Shown one piece after another: positions 7,772-37,199 of a stretch of DNA of 37,199 bases; position 1 is the stretch's first letter; every line of letters begins with the position of its first letter. A model generated the notes under the pieces. That model had not been told where the DNA came from. It saw only the letters and a program-made list of their open reading frames with translations, and searched no databases. Location: positions 1-37,199 of the IMG/VR virus record IMGVR_UViG_3300021197_001246; one strand, written 5' to 3'. The stretch is from a virus. The translations under genes were made by a program, and so were the position numbers.

Positions 7772-8307
7772 TAGTTAAGTGTAGAAATTGCAATCTGGAA
7801 TTTGACAAAAAACCAGCCGAAATAAAAGGAACCAAGCACAATTACTGCAAAAAGAAATGTAAGGGTGAATTTCTTTCAAAGCAAACCACGGAGAAATTTT
7901 ACCAAAAGTCAAAACCTAATGGTGAGTGCTGGGAGTGGACTGGATGTTTAAATAAATTCGGATACGGTACTGCAAGATACAAAGGCAAAGTTGAACTTGC
8001 TCACAGGGTCTCGTATATAATTTCTTGTGGCGAAATAGCTGACGGTATGTGCGTTTGTCATAAGTGTGACAACCCGAAATGCATAAATCCAGAGCACTTA
8101 TTTTTAGGAAGTCATCAAGAAAACATGGAGGATATGAGGGTCAAATTAAGAAAGTGGTCAAAGCTTACATTTGACGATGTAGAAGAGATAAGAGAAAGCT
8201 CAGAAAGCTCAATTGTGCTTGCAAAAAAGTATTCAGTATCAGATAGGGCCATAAGGTACGCAAGAGACACAACCCACTGGATGCCACTCCCAGAACCACC
8301 AAAATAA
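7768..8307 (+). CDS. HNH endonuclease (HNH_3 type) with N-terminal zinc ribbon
   Basis: 179 aa. Residues 5-31 hold CRNC...YCKKKC, a zinc ribbon. The nuclease part is LAHRVSY then VCHKCDNPKCINPEHLFLGS, the HNH_3 signature with paired Cys and the catalytic His/Asn/His positions. The C-terminal ~45 residues (FDDVEEIRESSESSIVLAKK then YSVSDRAIRYARD) form an HTH, probably for target recognition. This is the build of free-standing phage homing endonucleases. It is the last gene before a strong terminator. Its target site is not known. Confidence 0.85.
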   Translation: MIVKCRNCNLEFDKKPAEIKGTKHNYCKKKCKGEFLSKQTTEKFYQKSKPNGECWEWTGCLNKFGYGTARYKGKVELAHRVSYIISCGEIADGMCVCHKCDNPKCINPEHLFLGSHQENMEDMRVKLRKWSKLTFDDVEEIRESSESSIVLAKKYSVSDRAIRYARDTTHWMPLPEPPK

Positions 8308-8312
8308 CCACA

Positions 8313-8332
8313 CCCGCTACGGCGGGTTTTTT
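8313..8332 (+). terminator. Rho-independent terminator
   Basis: CCCGC-TACG-GCGGG followed by TTTTTT. It ends the 7201-8307 transcription unit. The 18-base string GCGGGTTTTTTATTGCCC is shared with the terminator at 16621. Confidence 0.92.
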
Positions 8333-8375
8333 ATTGCCCACCCAAAATTCAACTTCTCTATTTCACTAAATACGC

Positions 8376-8695: not shown

Positions 8696-9367
8696 ATGAA
8701 AGACTTAATGATAACACAGAACCAAACCTTAACAATGAGTAGTCGCGAGATTGCTGAGCTATTGTGCAAGAACCACTCAGACATTAAGCGATCTACGAAA
8801 AGATTGTATGAAGCTGGAATTTTAACCCAGCCATTGGCTGAGTCAGAATTCAACCATAGAGGCAATACTTACACTGAGTATTTGTTAGTAAAAAGAGATT
8901 GCTTAGTTTTGGTTGCTCAAAACAGTCCTGAGTTTACAGCAGCAATTGTTGATAGATGGCAAGAGCTAGAAAGCCAAGAGTTGCAAGCAATCCCTAATTT
9001 TACAGACCCGGCGCAAGCAGCTAGAGCGTGGGCAGAGCAATATGAAGCAAATGCAGAAAAGCAAAAACAGTTAGAGCTTGCAGCGCCAAAAGTAGAATTT
9101 CACGACAAGGTTGTAAATGATGAAAACACATTCAGCTTTAGGGATGCAGCGAAGAAGATCCAGCAGCGACCCAATAAACTCATTGATTGGCTAAGAGGTA
9201 AGGGTTATTTGTGCCTGAACAACATGGCAAAGCAGCAGTATATAGCGCAGGGTCTATTTGCCACGCATAGCGGCGTAAGTGATACCGGGCACCATTACAC
9301 GCAATGCAGGGTTACAGGTAAAGGGTTGTCATATTTCATTGAAAAGCTAGGGAGCGAAAAACTATGA
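8696..9367 (+). CDS. Rha-family regulator with KilAC-type C-terminus (antirepressor-like)
   Basis: 223 aa. Residues 1-85 are a Rha domain: MSSREIAELLCKNHSDIKRS, then YTEYLLVKRDCLVLVAQNS and an FTAAIVDRWQELE helix. Residues about 110-223 match the KilAC/ANT domain of phage antirepressors (FRDAAKKIQQRPNKLIDWL, GKGYL, YTQCRVTGKGLSYF). Such proteins bind repressors or DNA and switch early gene expression. It overlaps the replication gene by four bases. No CI-like repressor or integrase is present, so either lysogeny genes were lost or it counters a host or prophage repressor. Confidence 0.85.
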   Translation: MKDLMITQNQTLTMSSREIAELLCKNHSDIKRSTKRLYEAGILTQPLAESEFNHRGNTYTEYLLVKRDCLVLVAQNSPEFTAAIVDRWQELESQELQAIPNFTDPAQAARAWAEQYEANAEKQKQLELAAPKVEFHDKVVNDENTFSFRDAAKKIQQRPNKLIDWLRGKGYLCLNNMAKQQYIAQGLFATHSGVSDTGHHYTQCRVTGKGLSYFIEKLGSEKL

Positions 9368-11914: not shown

Positions 11915-11928
11915 TCCGATACTAAATA
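11913..11928 (+). repeat. 16-bp direct repeat, right of methyltransferase gene
   Basis: AGTCCGATACTAAATA, identical to 11005-11020; the second copy overlaps the last two bases of the gene's stop codon. Confidence 0.9.
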
Positions 11929-11955
11929 GCTTAAATTAATTATTGACTGGTACCG
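11926..11955 (+). repeat. 30-bp repeat, copy 1 (promoter-like)
   Basis: It matches 12775-12804 at 28 of 30 positions, including 23 identical bases running from TTAAATTAATT to TTGACTGGTAC. The copy contains a -35 box TTGACT (11943-11948) but no good -10 box at the right distance. Confidence 0.85.
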
Positions 11956-11981
11956 GTTGATGTTGAAGCCAAAAATTAAAA

Positions 11982-12613: not shown

Positions 12614-12788
12614 AGAACTAATAAAAAAGCTAGGTGGTAATCGTGCTGCACTAGCTAAACAGTGGAGCACCACAGAACAGCAGATAAACAACTGGGTAAG
12701 CCAGGATAGGGAGGTTGTAGAGCTTGCAAATGGTGATTTCATTATCATAAACAAGCACAGCCGAATCCTATCATATAGTTTAAATTAA
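12603..12788 (+). CDS. Cro-like HTH regulator
   Basis: 61 aa from the ATG at 12603 inside the end of the previous gene. MKLKELIKKLGGNRAALAKQ followed by WSTTEQQINNWVSQ is an HTH of the Cro/YdaS type. The protein has Cro size and position: a small regulator upstream of repeated promoter sequences. Its stop codon lies inside repeat copy 2 (12775-12804). It is the best candidate for a repressor acting on the local palindromic sites. Confidence 0.7.
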   Translation: MKLKELIKKLGGNRAALAKQWSTTEQQINNWVSQDREVVELANGDFIIINKHSRILSYSLN

Positions 12789-12804
12789 TTATTGACTGGT
12801 ACTG
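12775..12804 (+). repeat. 30-bp repeat, copy 2
   Basis: Second copy of the 11926-11955 repeat (28 of 30 bases). It supplies the stop codon of the Cro-like gene and the -35 of the next promoter. Confidence 0.85.
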
Positions 12805-12820
12805 ATTTTGGGTGTAGATT
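12792..12820 (+). promoter_or_regulatory. Rightward promoter
   Basis: TTGACT (12792-12797), 17-base spacer, TAGATT (12815-12820), with AT-rich UP-like sequence ahead of the -35. Confidence 0.6.
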
Positions 12821-13403: not shown

Positions 13404-13982
13404 GTGACCGCTAAACTAACAGCAAAGCAAGAATTATTCTGCAAAGAGTACCTAAAAGATTTAAACGCAACACAAGCCGCATTGAGGGCTGGATATAGTG
13501 AAAATACATCCAGACAGATAGGCACAGAAAACCTTGCAAAACCAGCCGTAGCGGCGAAAATAGCGCAATTAATGAGTGAAAGGGTCGAAAGTGTCGATAT
13601 AGACGCCTCATACGTACTCAGGCGGCTTAAAGAGATAGACCAGTTAGATATACTCGATATTATGAATGATGAGCTTGACGGCTTTAAGAGGCTGTCTGAG
13701 TGGCCTAAGTCTTGGCGCATTTCTATATCGGGTATTGATGTTCAGACTATCGTATCTGGTGGCGATGAGCCAGTAGAGAAGCTGGTAAGAAAAATCAAAT
13801 GGCCGGATAAAACCAAAAACCTTGAGCTCATTGGTAAGCATGTTGATGTTAAGGCTTGGGATAAAGAGCAGGAGGTTACAAGTGTTGTTCATAACATCAT
13901 GCCGGTACCAACAGCGGCAAGTGCGGAAGATTGGGAAAGCACAGCAAAGGATCAGCAGCAAGGTCTATTAAGCCATGACTGA
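13404..13982 (+). CDS. terS: Terminase small subunit
   Basis: 192 aa, GTG start with GGAG eight bases upstream. KLTAKQELFCKEYLKDLNAT then QAALRAGYSENTSRQIGTEN is the classic DNA-binding N-terminal HTH of the terminase_2 family, followed by an oligomerising helical part. It recognises the packaging site and regulates the large subunit. It overlaps terL by eight bases, the usual coupling. The site it binds is probably near its own gene. Confidence 0.93.
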   Translation: MTAKLTAKQELFCKEYLKDLNATQAALRAGYSENTSRQIGTENLAKPAVAAKIAQLMSERVESVDIDASYVLRRLKEIDQLDILDIMNDELDGFKRLSEWPKSWRISISGIDVQTIVSGGDEPVEKLVRKIKWPDKTKNLELIGKHVDVKAWDKEQEVTSVVHNIMPVPTAASAEDWESTAKDQQQGLLSHD

Positions 13983-15528
13983 TTACAATGTGGTGCTAAA
14001 GCCGCAAGATGGTAGTCAGTCACTTGCCCTATCCTGCCCATGTAATGAAATACTTTACGAAGGTACGCGCGGACCGGGCAAAACAGCTTGCCAGTTAATG
14101 AGGTTTAGGCGTCTTGTTGGGCTTGGTTACGGTGCATTCTGGAAAGGTGTTATATTTGATATAGAGTATAAAAACCTAGGCGATATCATATCCCAATCAA
14201 AGAAGCTATTTAATAAATTCAATGATGGTGCCAAGTTCCTGCAATCGGCTAGTGAGCTTAAATGGGTTTGGCCCACTGGTGAGGAATTACTATTTAGATA
14301 TGAGCAAAAGGCTGATGGTTACTGGAACTATCATGGGCAAGAATTCCCCTTTGTTGGTCACAACGAACTTACAAAGAGGGCGGATAGTGAGTTTTACGAG
14401 TCTATGTTTTCTTGTATGCGCTCATCATTTAGGCCAGAAGATTACCCGCTACCTGACGGCTCACTATTACCACCTATACCGCTTGAATGCTTCTCTACTA
14501 CCAACCCTTTCGGTGTTGGCCACACTTGGGTTAAGAAGAGATTTATTGACCCAGTACCGCGTGGAACTATCAACAAGCAAGAGATAAAGACGTTCAACCC
14601 GCAGACTGAGCTTGAGGAGACTGTTACTTTAACCAGGGTGGCAATTCATGGTTCATGGCGTGAGAATAAATACCTAGACCCGACTTACATTGCATTCCTA
14701 ATGAATATCAAAGACCCAAACAAGCGCAAGGCATGGGTAAATGGTGATTGGTCTGTGACGTCAGGCGGTAGGTTTGACCATCTATGGCGTGAGCATGTTC
14801 ATGTTATTGATCCGTTCGAGATACCCGCTAGATGGCACGTTGACCGCTCGCATGACTGGGGTGAATCAAAGCCATTTAGTAATCTTTGGTTTGCTGAGTC
14901 CGATGGTAAGCCTGTTGAGATTAACGGAAAGTACATGAAGTACCCGTATGGCACACTGTTTGTAATTGGTGAGTTTTACGGCTGCGAGCATGACCAGCAC
15001 AATACCGGCTTAAAGATGAGTGCCACCAATGTAGCTAAAGATGTTGCTTTGATAGACAGGGCGCTAAGGGGTGAGGATGTGAAGCCGTCCGGCGCTGGTG
15101 AGGTTAATTACATTCATGGTATATGCAAAAACGTCAGGCGCGTTCATGCGGGACCAGCCGATAACGCTATATTCAACAAGGATGACGAGCAGGTTTCAAT
15201 CGGTGACAAGATGAAAAGCCAGGGTGTTGATTGGACTAAATCAGATAAAGCGCCCGGCTCAAGAGTTGGTGGTGCGGCGGTGTTGTGTGAAATGTTAGAG
15301 GCGGCTATTGAGGGTAATGACAGTCAAAGCGGCATGCCAGAGAGACCCGCTATATACTTCTTTAACAATGTAAGGGGTATTATATCTAGGTTCCCTGTGC
15401 TTAGCCGTGACACTAAAAAGCCTGATGATGTTGACACCGGGCAAGAAGATCATGATTACGATGCGCTTAGGTATAGAGCTACGGCTAAGAAGTACAAGCC
15501 GCTAACCTCTAAGATAAGATTCGCTTAA
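13975..15528 (+). CDS. terL: Terminase large subunit
   Basis: 517 aa. The ATPase P-loop is GTRGPGKT (residues 30-37), near the N-terminus as usual. The acidic Walker B/catalytic region lies around FVGHNELTKRADSEFYESMF. The nuclease half starts near HVDRSHDWGESKPFSNLWFA, with further acidic residues in DDEQVSIGDKMKSQG and HDYDALRY near the C-terminus. The enzyme cuts concatemeric DNA and pumps it into the prohead through the portal. It is full length and intact. Confidence 0.96.
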   Translation: MTDYNVVLKPQDGSQSLALSCPCNEILYEGTRGPGKTACQLMRFRRLVGLGYGAFWKGVIFDIEYKNLGDIISQSKKLFNKFNDGAKFLQSASELKWVWPTGEELLFRYEQKADGYWNYHGQEFPFVGHNELTKRADSEFYESMFSCMRSSFRPEDYPLPDGSLLPPIPLECFSTTNPFGVGHTWVKKRFIDPVPRGTINKQEIKTFNPQTELEETVTLTRVAIHGSWRENKYLDPTYIAFLMNIKDPNKRKAWVNGDWSVTSGGRFDHLWREHVHVIDPFEIPARWHVDRSHDWGESKPFSNLWFAESDGKPVEINGKYMKYPYGTLFVIGEFYGCEHDQHNTGLKMSATNVAKDVALIDRALRGEDVKPSGAGEVNYIHGICKNVRRVHAGPADNAIFNKDDEQVSIGDKMKSQGVDWTKSDKAPGSRVGGAAVLCEMLEAAIEGNDSQSGMPERPAIYFFNNVRGIISRFPVLSRDTKKPDDVDTGQEDHDYDALRYRATAKKYKPLTSKIRFA

Positions 15529-15546
15529 ATTAATTTATAATTAATC

Positions 15547-15575
15547 TTGCAATCATTTTTAAGTAGAGTTATATT
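15547..15575 (+). promoter_or_regulatory. Strong internal promoter of the structured-RNA module
   Basis: TTGCAA (15547-15552), 17-base spacer, TATATT (15570-15575), preceded by UP-like AT-rich sequence. The predicted start is about 15582, exactly where the structured segment begins. Confidence 0.7.
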
Positions 15576-15579
15576 TAAT

Positions 15580-15672
15580 CCCGTCGTTAAGACATTCATG
15601 CGAGACCTCGGAAATCTCGCACCTATTAATTTAGGAATGTGTATTTTACCCCGTCGAGAGGCGGGGATTTTA
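15580..15672 (+). ncRNA. Structured RNA, small RNA or regulatory leader; IS200/IS605 end-like
   Basis: P1: ACATTC (15592-15597) pairs with GAATGT (15635-15640). Inside it P2: TGCGAGA (15599-15605) pairs with TCTCGCA (15615-15621). P3: CCCCGTC-GAGA-GGCGGGG (15649-15666) is a 7-bp stem with a GNRA loop followed by ATTTTAAT. A second CCCGT at 15580-15584 could replace the 5' arm of P3. P3 can act as a terminator or hide the GGGGA before the ATG at 15673. The CCCGTC hairpins also resemble the right ends of IS200/IS605 elements. Structure is seen by eye; function and origin are inferred. Confidence 0.55.
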
Positions 15673-15894
15673 ATGGATATAGTTATGGCTGGTATGATTA
15701 AGATTAAAAGAGAAGAGTTGCAGCAGGTTATTGAAAACTTAATTAGATTTAACGATGCAGAAGAAATTCTTATAGGTACTGATACCGTATCTGACGAGTT
15801 AAGAAGTAGGCCGCTCAATGCTGAAAAAGTAAAAGAGCCGTGCACCACAACGATAACTATAGTAATGAAAGGTGAGGGTGTTTTTTATCAATAG
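15673..15894 (+). CDS. 73-aa protein under the structured leader
   Basis: The ATG at 15673 follows the P3 hairpin, whose GGGGA would be the Shine-Dalgarno at five bases; ATGs at 15685 and 15694 are alternatives. The frame stays open farther upstream through the structured segment, but that part is unlikely to be coding. The product is helical at first (IKIKREELQQVIENLIRFND) and then beta-prone (TTTITIVMKGEGVFY). It is the only gene between its own promoter and a terminator, so it is an independent accessory unit. No family is recognised. Confidence 0.6.
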   Translation: MDIVMAGMIKIKREELQQVIENLIRFNDAEEILIGTDTVSDELRSRPLNAEKVKEPCTTTITIVMKGEGVFYQ

Positions 15895-15920: not shown

Positions 15921-15938
15921 CAAGGCCGAGGCCTTTTT
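15921..15938 (+). terminator. Rho-independent terminator of the accessory unit
   Basis: AAGGC-CGAG-GCCTT followed by TTTT, 27 bases after the 73-aa gene. Confidence 0.75.
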
Positions 15939-15962: not shown

Positions 15963-16385
15963 ATGGGTAAAGTTGATTGGAGTAAGGCGCCTGAGGGTGC
16001 TGAGTTTAGTGTTCGCGCTGGTTTTTATCGTATTTTGGATGGCTCTTTAGGTGTATGGAATCCTATGATTTGTATTTGGGTTGCATCAGATTTGGATATC
16101 ACTTGGGCTCGACGGCAGGGCTGTTACGAGCTAAGGCCTAGCAATTGCAAAGTAAGCGCGGACTGTGTAAAGTCACCTAATCACTATCAATTGATGGGTG
16201 GTATAGAGTTAATTGAGATAATAGCGCGCTCAATGACCAAGGAGCAATGGAAGGGTTTTTGTCTTGGTAATATGCTTAAGTATCGCATTCGTGCTGGCAA
16301 GAAGGATTGTTTGCAGCAAGATATAGATAAGGCTAATTTTTATGGCGAGCTTTACGAAATGCATAAGGGTAAGTGTTATGAGTGA
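15963..16385 (+). CDS. DUF3310-containing protein
   Basis: 140 aa from the ATG at 15963 (GGAGAG upstream; an ATG at 15951 is less well placed). The C-terminal ~70 residues carry the DUF3310 pattern: SPNHYQLMGGIELIEIIARS, then GFCLGNMLKYRIRAGKK with a following DIDKANFYGELYE helix. The N-terminal 60 residues are a separate small domain rich in Trp. DUF3310 proteins are common in phages and usually early genes; a role in nucleotide metabolism has been suggested but not shown. Its presence inside the late head region is odd. Confidence 0.85.
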   Translation: MGKVDWSKAPEGAEFSVRAGFYRILDGSLGVWNPMICIWVASDLDITWARRQGCYELRPSNCKVSADCVKSPNHYQLMGGIELIEIIARSMTKEQWKGFCLGNMLKYRIRAGKKDCLQQDIDKANFYGELYEMHKGKCYE

Positions 16386-16596
16386 AAAAATAAGATGCGC
16401 AATTGATACTTTAAAAGGTGAGATGGCTGATGTTGAGCTTGGTTCTTACGCTCACTCTTGGCATTGTAATTTAGCAATGTGTTTTTACGACGCGGCCGTT
16501 GATGAGCTTGGTCATGATAAGGCTTATGAGCTTGCTAATAATTCTGCTACTGCATTTATGAGGTTGTTATTTGGGGTTGAAACTAAAAATGAATGA
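16378..16596 (+). CDS. Small protein, unknown
   Basis: 72 aa from the ATG at 16378, overlapping the DUF3310 stop by eight bases. Mostly helical, with several Cys and His (SWHCNLAMCFYDAAVD) that do not form an obvious metal site. It ends just before a terminator. Function unknown. Confidence 0.6.
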   Translation: MSEKIRCAIDTLKGEMADVELGSYAHSWHCNLAMCFYDAAVDELGHDKAYELANNSATAFMRLLFGVETKNE

Positions 16597-16620
16597 AGAA
16601 TATCGACCGATATAAATAGA

Positions 16621-16640
16621 CCCGCAATAGCGGGTTTTTT
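16621..16640 (+). terminator. Rho-independent terminator
   Basis: CCCGC-AATA-GCGGG followed by TTTTTT. It shares an 18-base string with the terminator at 8313. It separates the DUF3310 unit from the MuF gene. Confidence 0.92.
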
Positions 16641-16691
16641 ATTGCCCCTGATAAAATGCTAAACTAAACAAAAGCCCAATAGAGTTTAGTT

Positions 16692-18828: not shown

Positions 18829-18891
18829 AATCTAACATACTTAAAATTAATTGCAATATCATTTTACAATCATTTTATGTTGGGTTATAGT
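18829..18891. promoter_or_regulatory. Bidirectional promoter region of the 17.8-20.1 kb cassette
   Basis: Rightward: TTTACA (18863-18868), 17-base spacer, TATAGT (18886-18891). Leftward: TTGCAA (18851-18856), 16-base spacer, TAGATT (18829-18834). The shared segment 18841-18870 (TTAAAATTAATT-N6-TCATTTTACAAT) also occurs at 4618-4647. Confidence 0.6.
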
Positions 18892-18918
18892 TCAGCCATC
18901 GAAATGAAGGAGAGTGTT

Positions 18919-35581: not shown

Positions 35582-37199
35582 ATGGCTATCGAGCAACCTA
35601 CAACGCCGCCAACTATAACAGATTTACCGCCAGCACCGAATAGCGGCACAGATACACCTAGCGAGTTTGACGCTAAAGCAAATGTATTTGTTGCTGGTCA
35701 AGTTGGCTTGCCGCCTGAGCAAAACACAGCAAACTCATGGGTAAAAGAAACGTCAGACATTACATACAACAACGCGCTAGAGTCACAAGCAAGCGCTACG
35801 GCTTCTTCGACTTCTGCCACTCAGTCTGAGCAATCAGCAAGAGATTCAGAGGCAAGCGCCAACTATGTTGGACTTTGGTCTAGCTTAACTGGCTCGCTAA
35901 GCACTGGCGTTAGTGTCGGTCACGAAGGTGGCATATGGCGTTTAAATGTGAATCTATCAGATGTCACGACAAGTGAACCAAGCTTAACCAACACTGATTG
36001 GCAGCTTGGAATGATTAGAGCTACAGACTTGCAGGTAGAGCAAGGTACTCAGTACACAATGCCTGATTCATTGCAGCTTAATAACTTTGTAAAGCGCGAA
36101 TGGTCAAGCCTAACAACGCCTAAAACTTATAATGATTCATGCTGGTTTAATGGTAAAGAATACTTCATCAGAAACCCAGTTGATGACCCTAGTTTTTCAC
36201 CACCTGATAGGGCTGGGCGCAGTTACTATAATTATGGTGCATCGGATAGCATTAATATTGCAATTGATTTAGTTTCAGGCCAAAAAATCAAAGCGGGTTA
36301 TATCTCACCTTCAAGCTTTATAAGTAAGGATATAATCACTGGCATTTTATCACTTAGCTCAGATGGTACTTACAATATAGTTAGCGGCTTTGATGTATAC
36401 ATTGATGGAAGCTTAATATCTGGATCAACTAAATATAGCGCTGACGGATTGGTGCATGAAGTATTAATAACCATGAATGCATCATTTTCTATTACAAGTG
36501 TGTCTTTGCTTAGCTCGCTTGAAATACTAAGCACTACAGATGAAAGGCTGAGCTACTACCCGTTAGCTCGCGATGTGAACGATTATAACTCAGGTGTTTT
36601 GACTGTAGACCCTGAATTTACTTGGGCTGAAAACTTTACTTTAGGCGCTGGATGGTCAATTTCTAACAATGCACTTATCGGTGTTGCTGGGTCACAATCA
36701 AGCGTTACAACTCAATTGCAAGGTAGAACATTAAGCAAAGTTACAATACTTGCTAATCTGAATATTAACGCCGGATCAATAACTGTAGGCGATGAAACAT
36801 TTACGAATACAGGGTTTGCACATCAAGTAATAACGCAAACAAGTGACACGCTAACCATTACAAAGTCCTCTGACTTTGACGGCAGTATTGATTATTTAGG
36901 CTGCAAGAATAGCGAGGTTAAACAAGTAACTGATTTGTTAGGTAGTTTAAGCGGCTCGTCTAGGTGGTCAGGCATAGCAAGCGCTGATAATGGCTTACTG
37001 TATTGCGCTCCATTTAATTCAACACAAGTGCTAGAGATTAACCCAGTAAACAATACAACAAGTTTATTTGGGAGTTTAAGTGGTACAAGCAAGTGGCAAG
37101 GCATAGCAAGCGCTGATAACGGCTTACTGTACTGCGCTCCATACAGCTCGAATCAAGTGCTAGAGATTGACCCTATAAATAAAACAACAAACCTATTTG
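35582..37199 (+). CDS. Receptor-binding tail fibre, N-terminal part (continues at base 1)
   Basis: Starts at the ATG directly following the previous stop (AGAGGA about ten bases upstream) and has no stop before the window end. Residues 1-60 are Pro-rich and likely attach to the tail. Residues about 60-95 form an Ala/Ser-rich coiled segment (ESQASATASSTSATQSEQSA). Beta-rich domains follow (HEGGIWRLNVNLSDV then TDWQLGMI, as in many tail fibres). Repeats begin at residue 452 (36935). The gene ends at base 851 after wrapping, giving 822 aa. Fibre call is from N-terminal style and location. Confidence 0.85.
   Translation, partial: MAIEQPTTPPTITDLPPAPNSGTDTPSEFDAKANVFVAGQVGLPPEQNTANSWVKETSDITYNNALESQASATASSTSATQSEQSARDSEASANYVGLWSSLTGSLSTGVSVGHEGGIWRLNVNLSDVTTSEPSLTNTDWQLGMIRATDLQVEQGTQYTMPDSLQLNNFVKREWSSLTTPKTYNDSCWFNGKEYFIRNPVDDPSFSPPDRAGRSYYNYGASDSINIAIDLVSGQKIKAGYISPSSFISKDIITGILSLSSDGTYNIVSGFDVYIDGSLISGSTKYSADGLVHEVLITMNASFSITSVSLLSSLEILSTTDERLSYYPLARDVNDYNSGVLTVDPEFTWAENFTLGAGWSISNNALIGVAGSQSSVTTQLQGRTLSKVTILANLNINAGSITVGDETFTNTGFAHQVITQTSDTLTITKSSDFDGSIDYLGCKNSEVKQVTDLLGSLSGSSRWSGIASADNGLLYCAPFNSTQVLEINPVNNTTSLFGSLSGTSKWQGIASADNGLLYCAPYSSNQVLEIDPINKTTNLF
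36935..37199 (+). repeat. 129-bp tandem repeats, units 1, 2 and start of 3
   Basis: Units start at 36935, 37064 and 37193. The third has only seven bases before the window ends and is completed by bases 1-122. Same consensus as at 1-509. Unit 1 is the most diverged at its end (EINPVNNTT versus EIDPINKTT). Confidence 0.95.

What the first reader, a model, noticed from the sequence alone, without database searches (positions are those of the whole stretch)
15547..15672. Promoter plus compact structured RNA inside the late operon: small RNA, switch or terminator-attenuator
A good promoter starts transcription at the first base of a segment with three helices: P1/P2 nested (ACATTC/GAATGT around TGCGAGA/TCTCGCA), then CCCCGTC-GAGA-GGCGGGG. 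A second CCCGT at the 5' end could compete for the GCGGGG arm. The last hairpin is followed by ATTTTAAT and covers the likely Shine-Dalgarno of the 73-aa gene. This is the layout of a regulatory leader or a stand-alone small RNA, in a unit with its own terminator (15921).
Basis: partly seen in the sequence, partly recalled or inferred. Interest (0 to 1): 0.72.

Follow-up and report, generated by a model that had tools for sequence, protein, structure and literature searches.

The report
Phage leader hairpin hiding ribosome site
Between two phage head-packaging genes sits a small accessory gene with its own predicted promoter, and its messenger RNA begins with tight hairpins, the last of which buries the site where ribosomes would start; this is a believable but one-of-a-kind version of a control trick already known in other phages.

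Summary
The helices are real as sequence and unusual for this phage. Two stems of at least 7 bp within 100 nt occur nowhere else in the 37-kb window on either strand, and in 7 of 20,000 shuffles. The promoter at 15547 is good (rank 13 of about 74,000 positions) and related to a second promoter at 18863. Codon signal begins at the 73-aa ORF, not in the leader. The last hairpin (15649-15666, -13 kcal/mol) buries the Shine-Dalgarno. Opening that start costs 16.4 kcal/mol, the most among credible starts here. The hairpin scores below a terminator (d -10.4), and the proposed 5' CCCGT switch is disfavoured by 5.8 kcal/mol. Best reading: an accessory cassette in the variable TerL-MuF gap, whose leader suppresses translation of a small orphan gene, as in T4 gene e. 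No homologue of the RNA or the 73-aa protein was found, so covariation cannot be tested and no regulatory switch is shown. The stand-alone sRNA and attenuator readings are weaker but not excluded. Ordinary in kind, orphan in sequence.

The parts
15523..15576 (+). sigma70-like promoter (-35 TTGCAA 15547-15552, 17 nt, -10 TATATT 15570-15575) with AT-rich upstream tract CTTAAATTAATT; expected start about 15582
   Evidence: Rank 13 of about 74,000 positions in a PWM scan; local alignment score 26 to the region of a second promoter at 18863, shuffles 16.4 +/- 1.5, 0 of 200 reach it
15592..15641 (+). upper part of leader: optional P1 (ACATT/AATGT 15592-15596/15636-15640), P2 (TGCGAGA/TCTCGCA 15599-15605/15615-15621), P3 (CCTA/TAGG 15622-15625/15632-15635)
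   Evidence: P2 0.73-1.0, P3 0.64-0.99, P1 0.09-0.48 pairing probability
15649..15666 (+). P4 hairpin CCCCGTC-GAGA-GGCGGGG, GNRA-type loop, -13.0 kcal/mol, contains the Shine-Dalgarno of the next ORF
   Evidence: Inner six pairs 0.99-1.0; SD hybridisation -8.0 kcal/mol, spacing 7; opening cost 16.4 kcal/mol; terminator score -10.4
15673..15894 (+). 73-aa orphan ORF (alternative in-frame starts 15685 and 15694)
   Evidence: Codon score 0.388, known genes of the phage 0.34 +/- 0.09, off-frame -0.16 +/- 0.11; leader -0.06 to -0.19; no relative in phages, viral contigs or genomes
15923..15934 (+). weak terminator-like hairpin AGGCCGAGGCCT + TTTTT
   Evidence: d -7.4
15963..16385 (+). DUF3310 / 'nucleotide kinase' small protein, next gene of the cassette
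   Evidence: PF11753 E 1e-20; phrog_2585 E 8e-39; start 15963 has the better SD
16378..16596 (+). 72-aa ORF of the cassette
   Evidence: Codon score 0.374; 45% identity over 49 aa to an ORF in L016
16621..16634 (+). strong intrinsic terminator closing the cassette; the surrounding 42 nt are 81% identical to the terminator region at 8298-8339
   Evidence: d +27.2; repeat D11

Best explanation
The element is the promoter and 5' untranslated leader of a small accessory ('moron'-like) cassette inserted between the large terminase gene and the MuF-type head gene. RNA polymerase starts near 15582. The roughly 91-nt leader folds into P2, P3 (with optional P1) and a very stable GNRA-capped hairpin, P4, which holds the Shine-Dalgarno of the 73-aa gene and so keeps its translation low both on the cassette's own transcript and on read-through from terminase. 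Shown by computation: promoter match and its paralogue, helices, predicted RBS occlusion, codon signal starting at the ORF. Inferred: that the promoter fires and that the hairpin lowers translation in the cell. Unknown: whether anything (protein, sRNA, heat, RNase) opens it.
For: Promoter rank and paralogue; unique two-stem arrangement, 7/20,000 shuffles; P4 paired at about 1.0 in short and read-through transcripts; RBS opening cost 16.4 kcal/mol, highest among credible starts of 69 scored, about 6 typical (the one higher row, 1883, is a secondary start inside the 1829-2281 ORF); codon signal switches on at 15673; P4 below terminator threshold; cassette sits in a gap that holds different small ORFs in L002, L012, L015, L017, L018. 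Precedent: T4 e, soc, 49, I-TevI (PMC3014915).
Against: No homologue, so no covariation or conservation. Overall fold energy is only moderately unusual. If translation starts at ATG 15685 or 15694, P4 is not over the ribosome site (those starts have much weaker SDs). Unlike T4 gene e, both transcripts keep the whole hairpin, so no built-in way to open it is visible.
Confidence: 0.5

Rival explanations
1. Ordinary moron promoter and UTR in which the hairpins are incidental: the gene is expressed from its promoter and the stems have no selected role.
For: Overall z about -2.6 only; about 26 such single stems (14 on +, 12 on -) occur in 37 kb, only the close pair is unique; no conservation available.
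Against: Two-stem arrangement in 7/20,000 shuffles; P4 lies exactly on the best SD and has a GNRA loop.
Confidence: 0.25
2. P4 is a weak intrinsic terminator, so the promoter makes a stand-alone ~90-nt small RNA, or an attenuated leader with partial read-through into the 73-aa gene.
For: GC-rich stem plus ATTTT; consensus scan lists it as terminator-like; a relative (L044) has a similar hairpin with ATTTTT just after terminase that passes the threshold.
Against: d -10.4, well below the phage's good terminators (+27, +36); only 2 of 43 relatives have a terminator there; Rfam sRNA hits are far below gathering score.
Confidence: 0.17
3. The leader is a ligand- or protein-responsive cis-regulator (riboswitch-like, or autoregulated by a phage protein), the three-way junction being the sensor and P4 the expression platform.
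For: Layout: junction P1-P3, linker, RBS-sequestering hairpin; P1 is marginal, as a sensor helix could be.
Against: No Rfam match, no homologue, no evidence for a ligand.
Confidence: 0.05
4. Two-state switch in which the 5' CCCGT competes with CCCCGTC for the GGCGGGG arm.
For: CCCGTCG occurs at both places.
Against: Alternative fold costs 5.8 kcal/mol (-26.6 against -32.4) and the start of transcription falls inside the 5' arm.
Confidence: 0.03

Closest known systems
RBS-sequestering hairpins of T4 genes e, soc, 49 and I-TevI (PMC3014915)
   Same: A stable helix takes up the Shine-Dalgarno of a phage gene and is expected to block 30S binding.
   Different: In T4 gene e the late promoters lie so that their transcripts lack the 5' arm and are translated; here the promoter is upstream of the whole hairpin. 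No sequence relation was tested.
mobE leader hairpin of phage Aeh1 (Gibb and Edgell 2009, known here only from its title in the reference list of PMC3014915)
   Same: A hairpin sequesters the ribosome site of an accessory gene embedded among conserved phage genes.
   Different: mobE is a homing endonuclease; the 73-aa protein has no known relatives.
Moron cassettes of temperate phages (for example PMC6469090, abstract seen)
   Same: Extra gene between conserved genes, with its own promoter-like and terminator-like sites, at a variable position.
   Different: Expression independent of the phage programme is not shown; a structured leader is not a usual part of the definition.

Membership tests
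Moron / accessory cassette | Extra DNA between genes that are adjacent or differently spaced in relatives | tested here: met
   Terminase relatives run straight into portal or carry different ORFs in the TerL-MuF gap
Moron / accessory cassette | Own promoter and terminator (as sequence) | tested here: met
   Promoter 15547, terminator 16621; activity not tested
Moron / accessory cassette | Transcribed independently of the rest of the phage, e.g. in the lysogen | not testable with these tools
   Needs RNA-seq
RBS-sequestering leader | SD and/or start codon in a stable helix | tested here: met
   16.4 kcal/mol opening cost, P4 pairing about 1.0; prediction only
RBS-sequestering leader | Helix lowers translation; a second state or transcript relieves it | not testable with these tools
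   No relieving state seen in sequence; 5' arm alternative disfavoured
Intrinsic terminator / sRNA 3' end | GC-rich hairpin followed at once by a U tract | tested here: not met
   d -10.4, tail ATTTTAAT
Any Rfam family | Score at or above gathering threshold | tested here: not met
   No match at gathering in the window; best-E sub-threshold hit anti-hemB 17.5 bits against 49.5
Conserved structured RNA | Compensatory changes among homologues | not testable with these tools
   No homologue in viral contigs or held loci

The most novel reading that the evidence does not exclude
A new class of phage cis-regulatory RNA: a three-way junction sensor joined to an RBS-sequestering GNRA hairpin that switches a small orphan protein on in response to a phage or host signal.
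Probability: 0.05. Interest if true: 0.6.

Novelty: new member of a known kind. Interest (0 to 1): 0.25.

Why it matters
If it works as proposed, it is one more case of a phage muffling an accessory gene at the level of translation inside an otherwise heavily transcribed head-gene region, using an RNA lock with no obvious key. It points to a specific small orphan gene worth testing for an effect on the host, since genes kept this tightly shut are often harmful when made at the wrong time (inference).

Tried and rejected
5' CCCGT competitor: rejected on energy and start-site position. Upstream coding extension (the frame is open from 15547, giving 98-115 aa): rejected by codon score and weak SDs. 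Rfam, tRNA: nothing. Repeat copies of the hairpin in the window: none besides itself. Pattern scans of viral contigs for the stems: 3, 0 and 57 hits; those read look like chance. Single-sequence covariance model over 90 loci: only itself is significant; the next hits, in the Chromobacterium-type phage L044/L144 at E 0.23, are a terminator-like hairpin. Leader similarity to 16470-16491: not convincing, 19 of 400 shuffles do as well. AlphaFold of the 73-aa protein alone: pLDDT 54, too poor for a fold search. Neighbour-protein scans gave no close phage; the genome scan with terminase gave only 34-65% relatives, without the element.

Full report
Setting. The window is a whole IMG/VR virus record of 37,199 bases with terminase small subunit (13404), terminase large subunit (13975-15528), MuF-like head gene (16692), portal (20227), major head protein (22482) and tape measure (30339) on the + strand. 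The finding lies in the 1.2-kb gap between terminase and MuF.

Observation. The helices are present. The overall fold has z -2.6 against shuffles and ranks in about the best 2-6% of 96-nt windows (one offset gave -4.75 with only 20 shuffles). The pair of stems within 100 nt is unique in the window and seen in 7 of 20,000 shuffles of the leader; that criterion was chosen afterwards, so the figure flatters it.

Promoter. TTGCAA-17-TATATT ranks 13th of about 74,000 scored positions, although the simple consensus scan finds no more promoter-like sites in this region than shuffles do. What lifts it is that its 60-bp surroundings align with a second promoter region at 18840-18900 (score 26; shuffles 16.4 +/- 1.5, none of 200), ahead of another set of small ORFs.

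Gene. Codon preference trained on the phage's larger genes is noncoding-like in all frames of 15547-15672 and strongly coding in 15673-15891, so the 73-aa ORF is probably a real gene and the leader is untranslated, although one frame is open through it. The best Shine-Dalgarno belongs to ATG 15673 (-8.0 kcal/mol, spacing 7). The protein has no relative in phage records, IMG/VR or 84,980 genomes by the methods used and no Pfam or PHROGs match. The collection scans find only close relatives of a single protein.

Function of P4. P4 holds that Shine-Dalgarno. Opening -18 to +3 around the start costs 16.4 kcal/mol, against about 6 for a typical gene of this phage; only a misassigned inner start at 1883 scores higher. 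The proposed 5' competitor loses by 5.8 kcal/mol, and the expected start of transcription lies within it.

Context. Relatives with 65-82% identical terminase do not have the element; several carry other small ORFs in the TerL-MuF gap, and the region around the strong terminator that closes this cassette is an 81% copy of the one at 8298. This is the anatomy of an accessory cassette. T4 genes e, soc, 49 and I-TevI are documented cases of RBS-sequestering leaders in phage (PMC3014915).

Verdict. A plausible translational lock on a small accessory gene, ordinary in kind, with no homologues to test it. Neither the promoter's activity nor any regulation is shown.

Noticed in passing
15523-15582 and 18840-18900: Two related promoter regions (TTRCAATCATTTT...GTTATA with an upstream AAATTAATT tract), each ahead of a group of small accessory ORFs among the head genes.
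   Followed up: partly
11926-11958 and 12775-12807: 33-nt direct repeat (91%) ATAGYTTAAATTAATTATTGACTGGTACYGRTT at two promoter-like sites; shares the TTAAATTAATT tract with 15525 (9 near-matches in the window, 3.7 expected).
   Followed up: partly
8298-8339 and 16606-16647: Two strong terminators with 81% identical 42-nt surroundings (CCCGC..GCGGGTTTTTTATTGCCC).
   Followed up: partly
1-516 and 36938-37199: 129-nt tandem repeats at both ends of the record, probably one repetitive gene cut by the arbitrary ends of the record.
   Followed up: no
8696-9367: Rha/KilAC-type antirepressor gene, suggesting a temperate phage.
   Followed up: no
15627-15649 and 16470-16491: TAATTTAGGAATGTGTATTTTAC in the leader resembles a stretch inside the 72-aa gene (21 of 23 columns, one gap, one mismatch); 19 of 400 shuffles do as well.
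   Followed up: yes
L002, L012, L015, L017, L018 between terminase and MuF: The TerL-MuF gap holds different small ORFs, on either strand, in different phages: an accessory-gene hotspot.
   Followed up: partly
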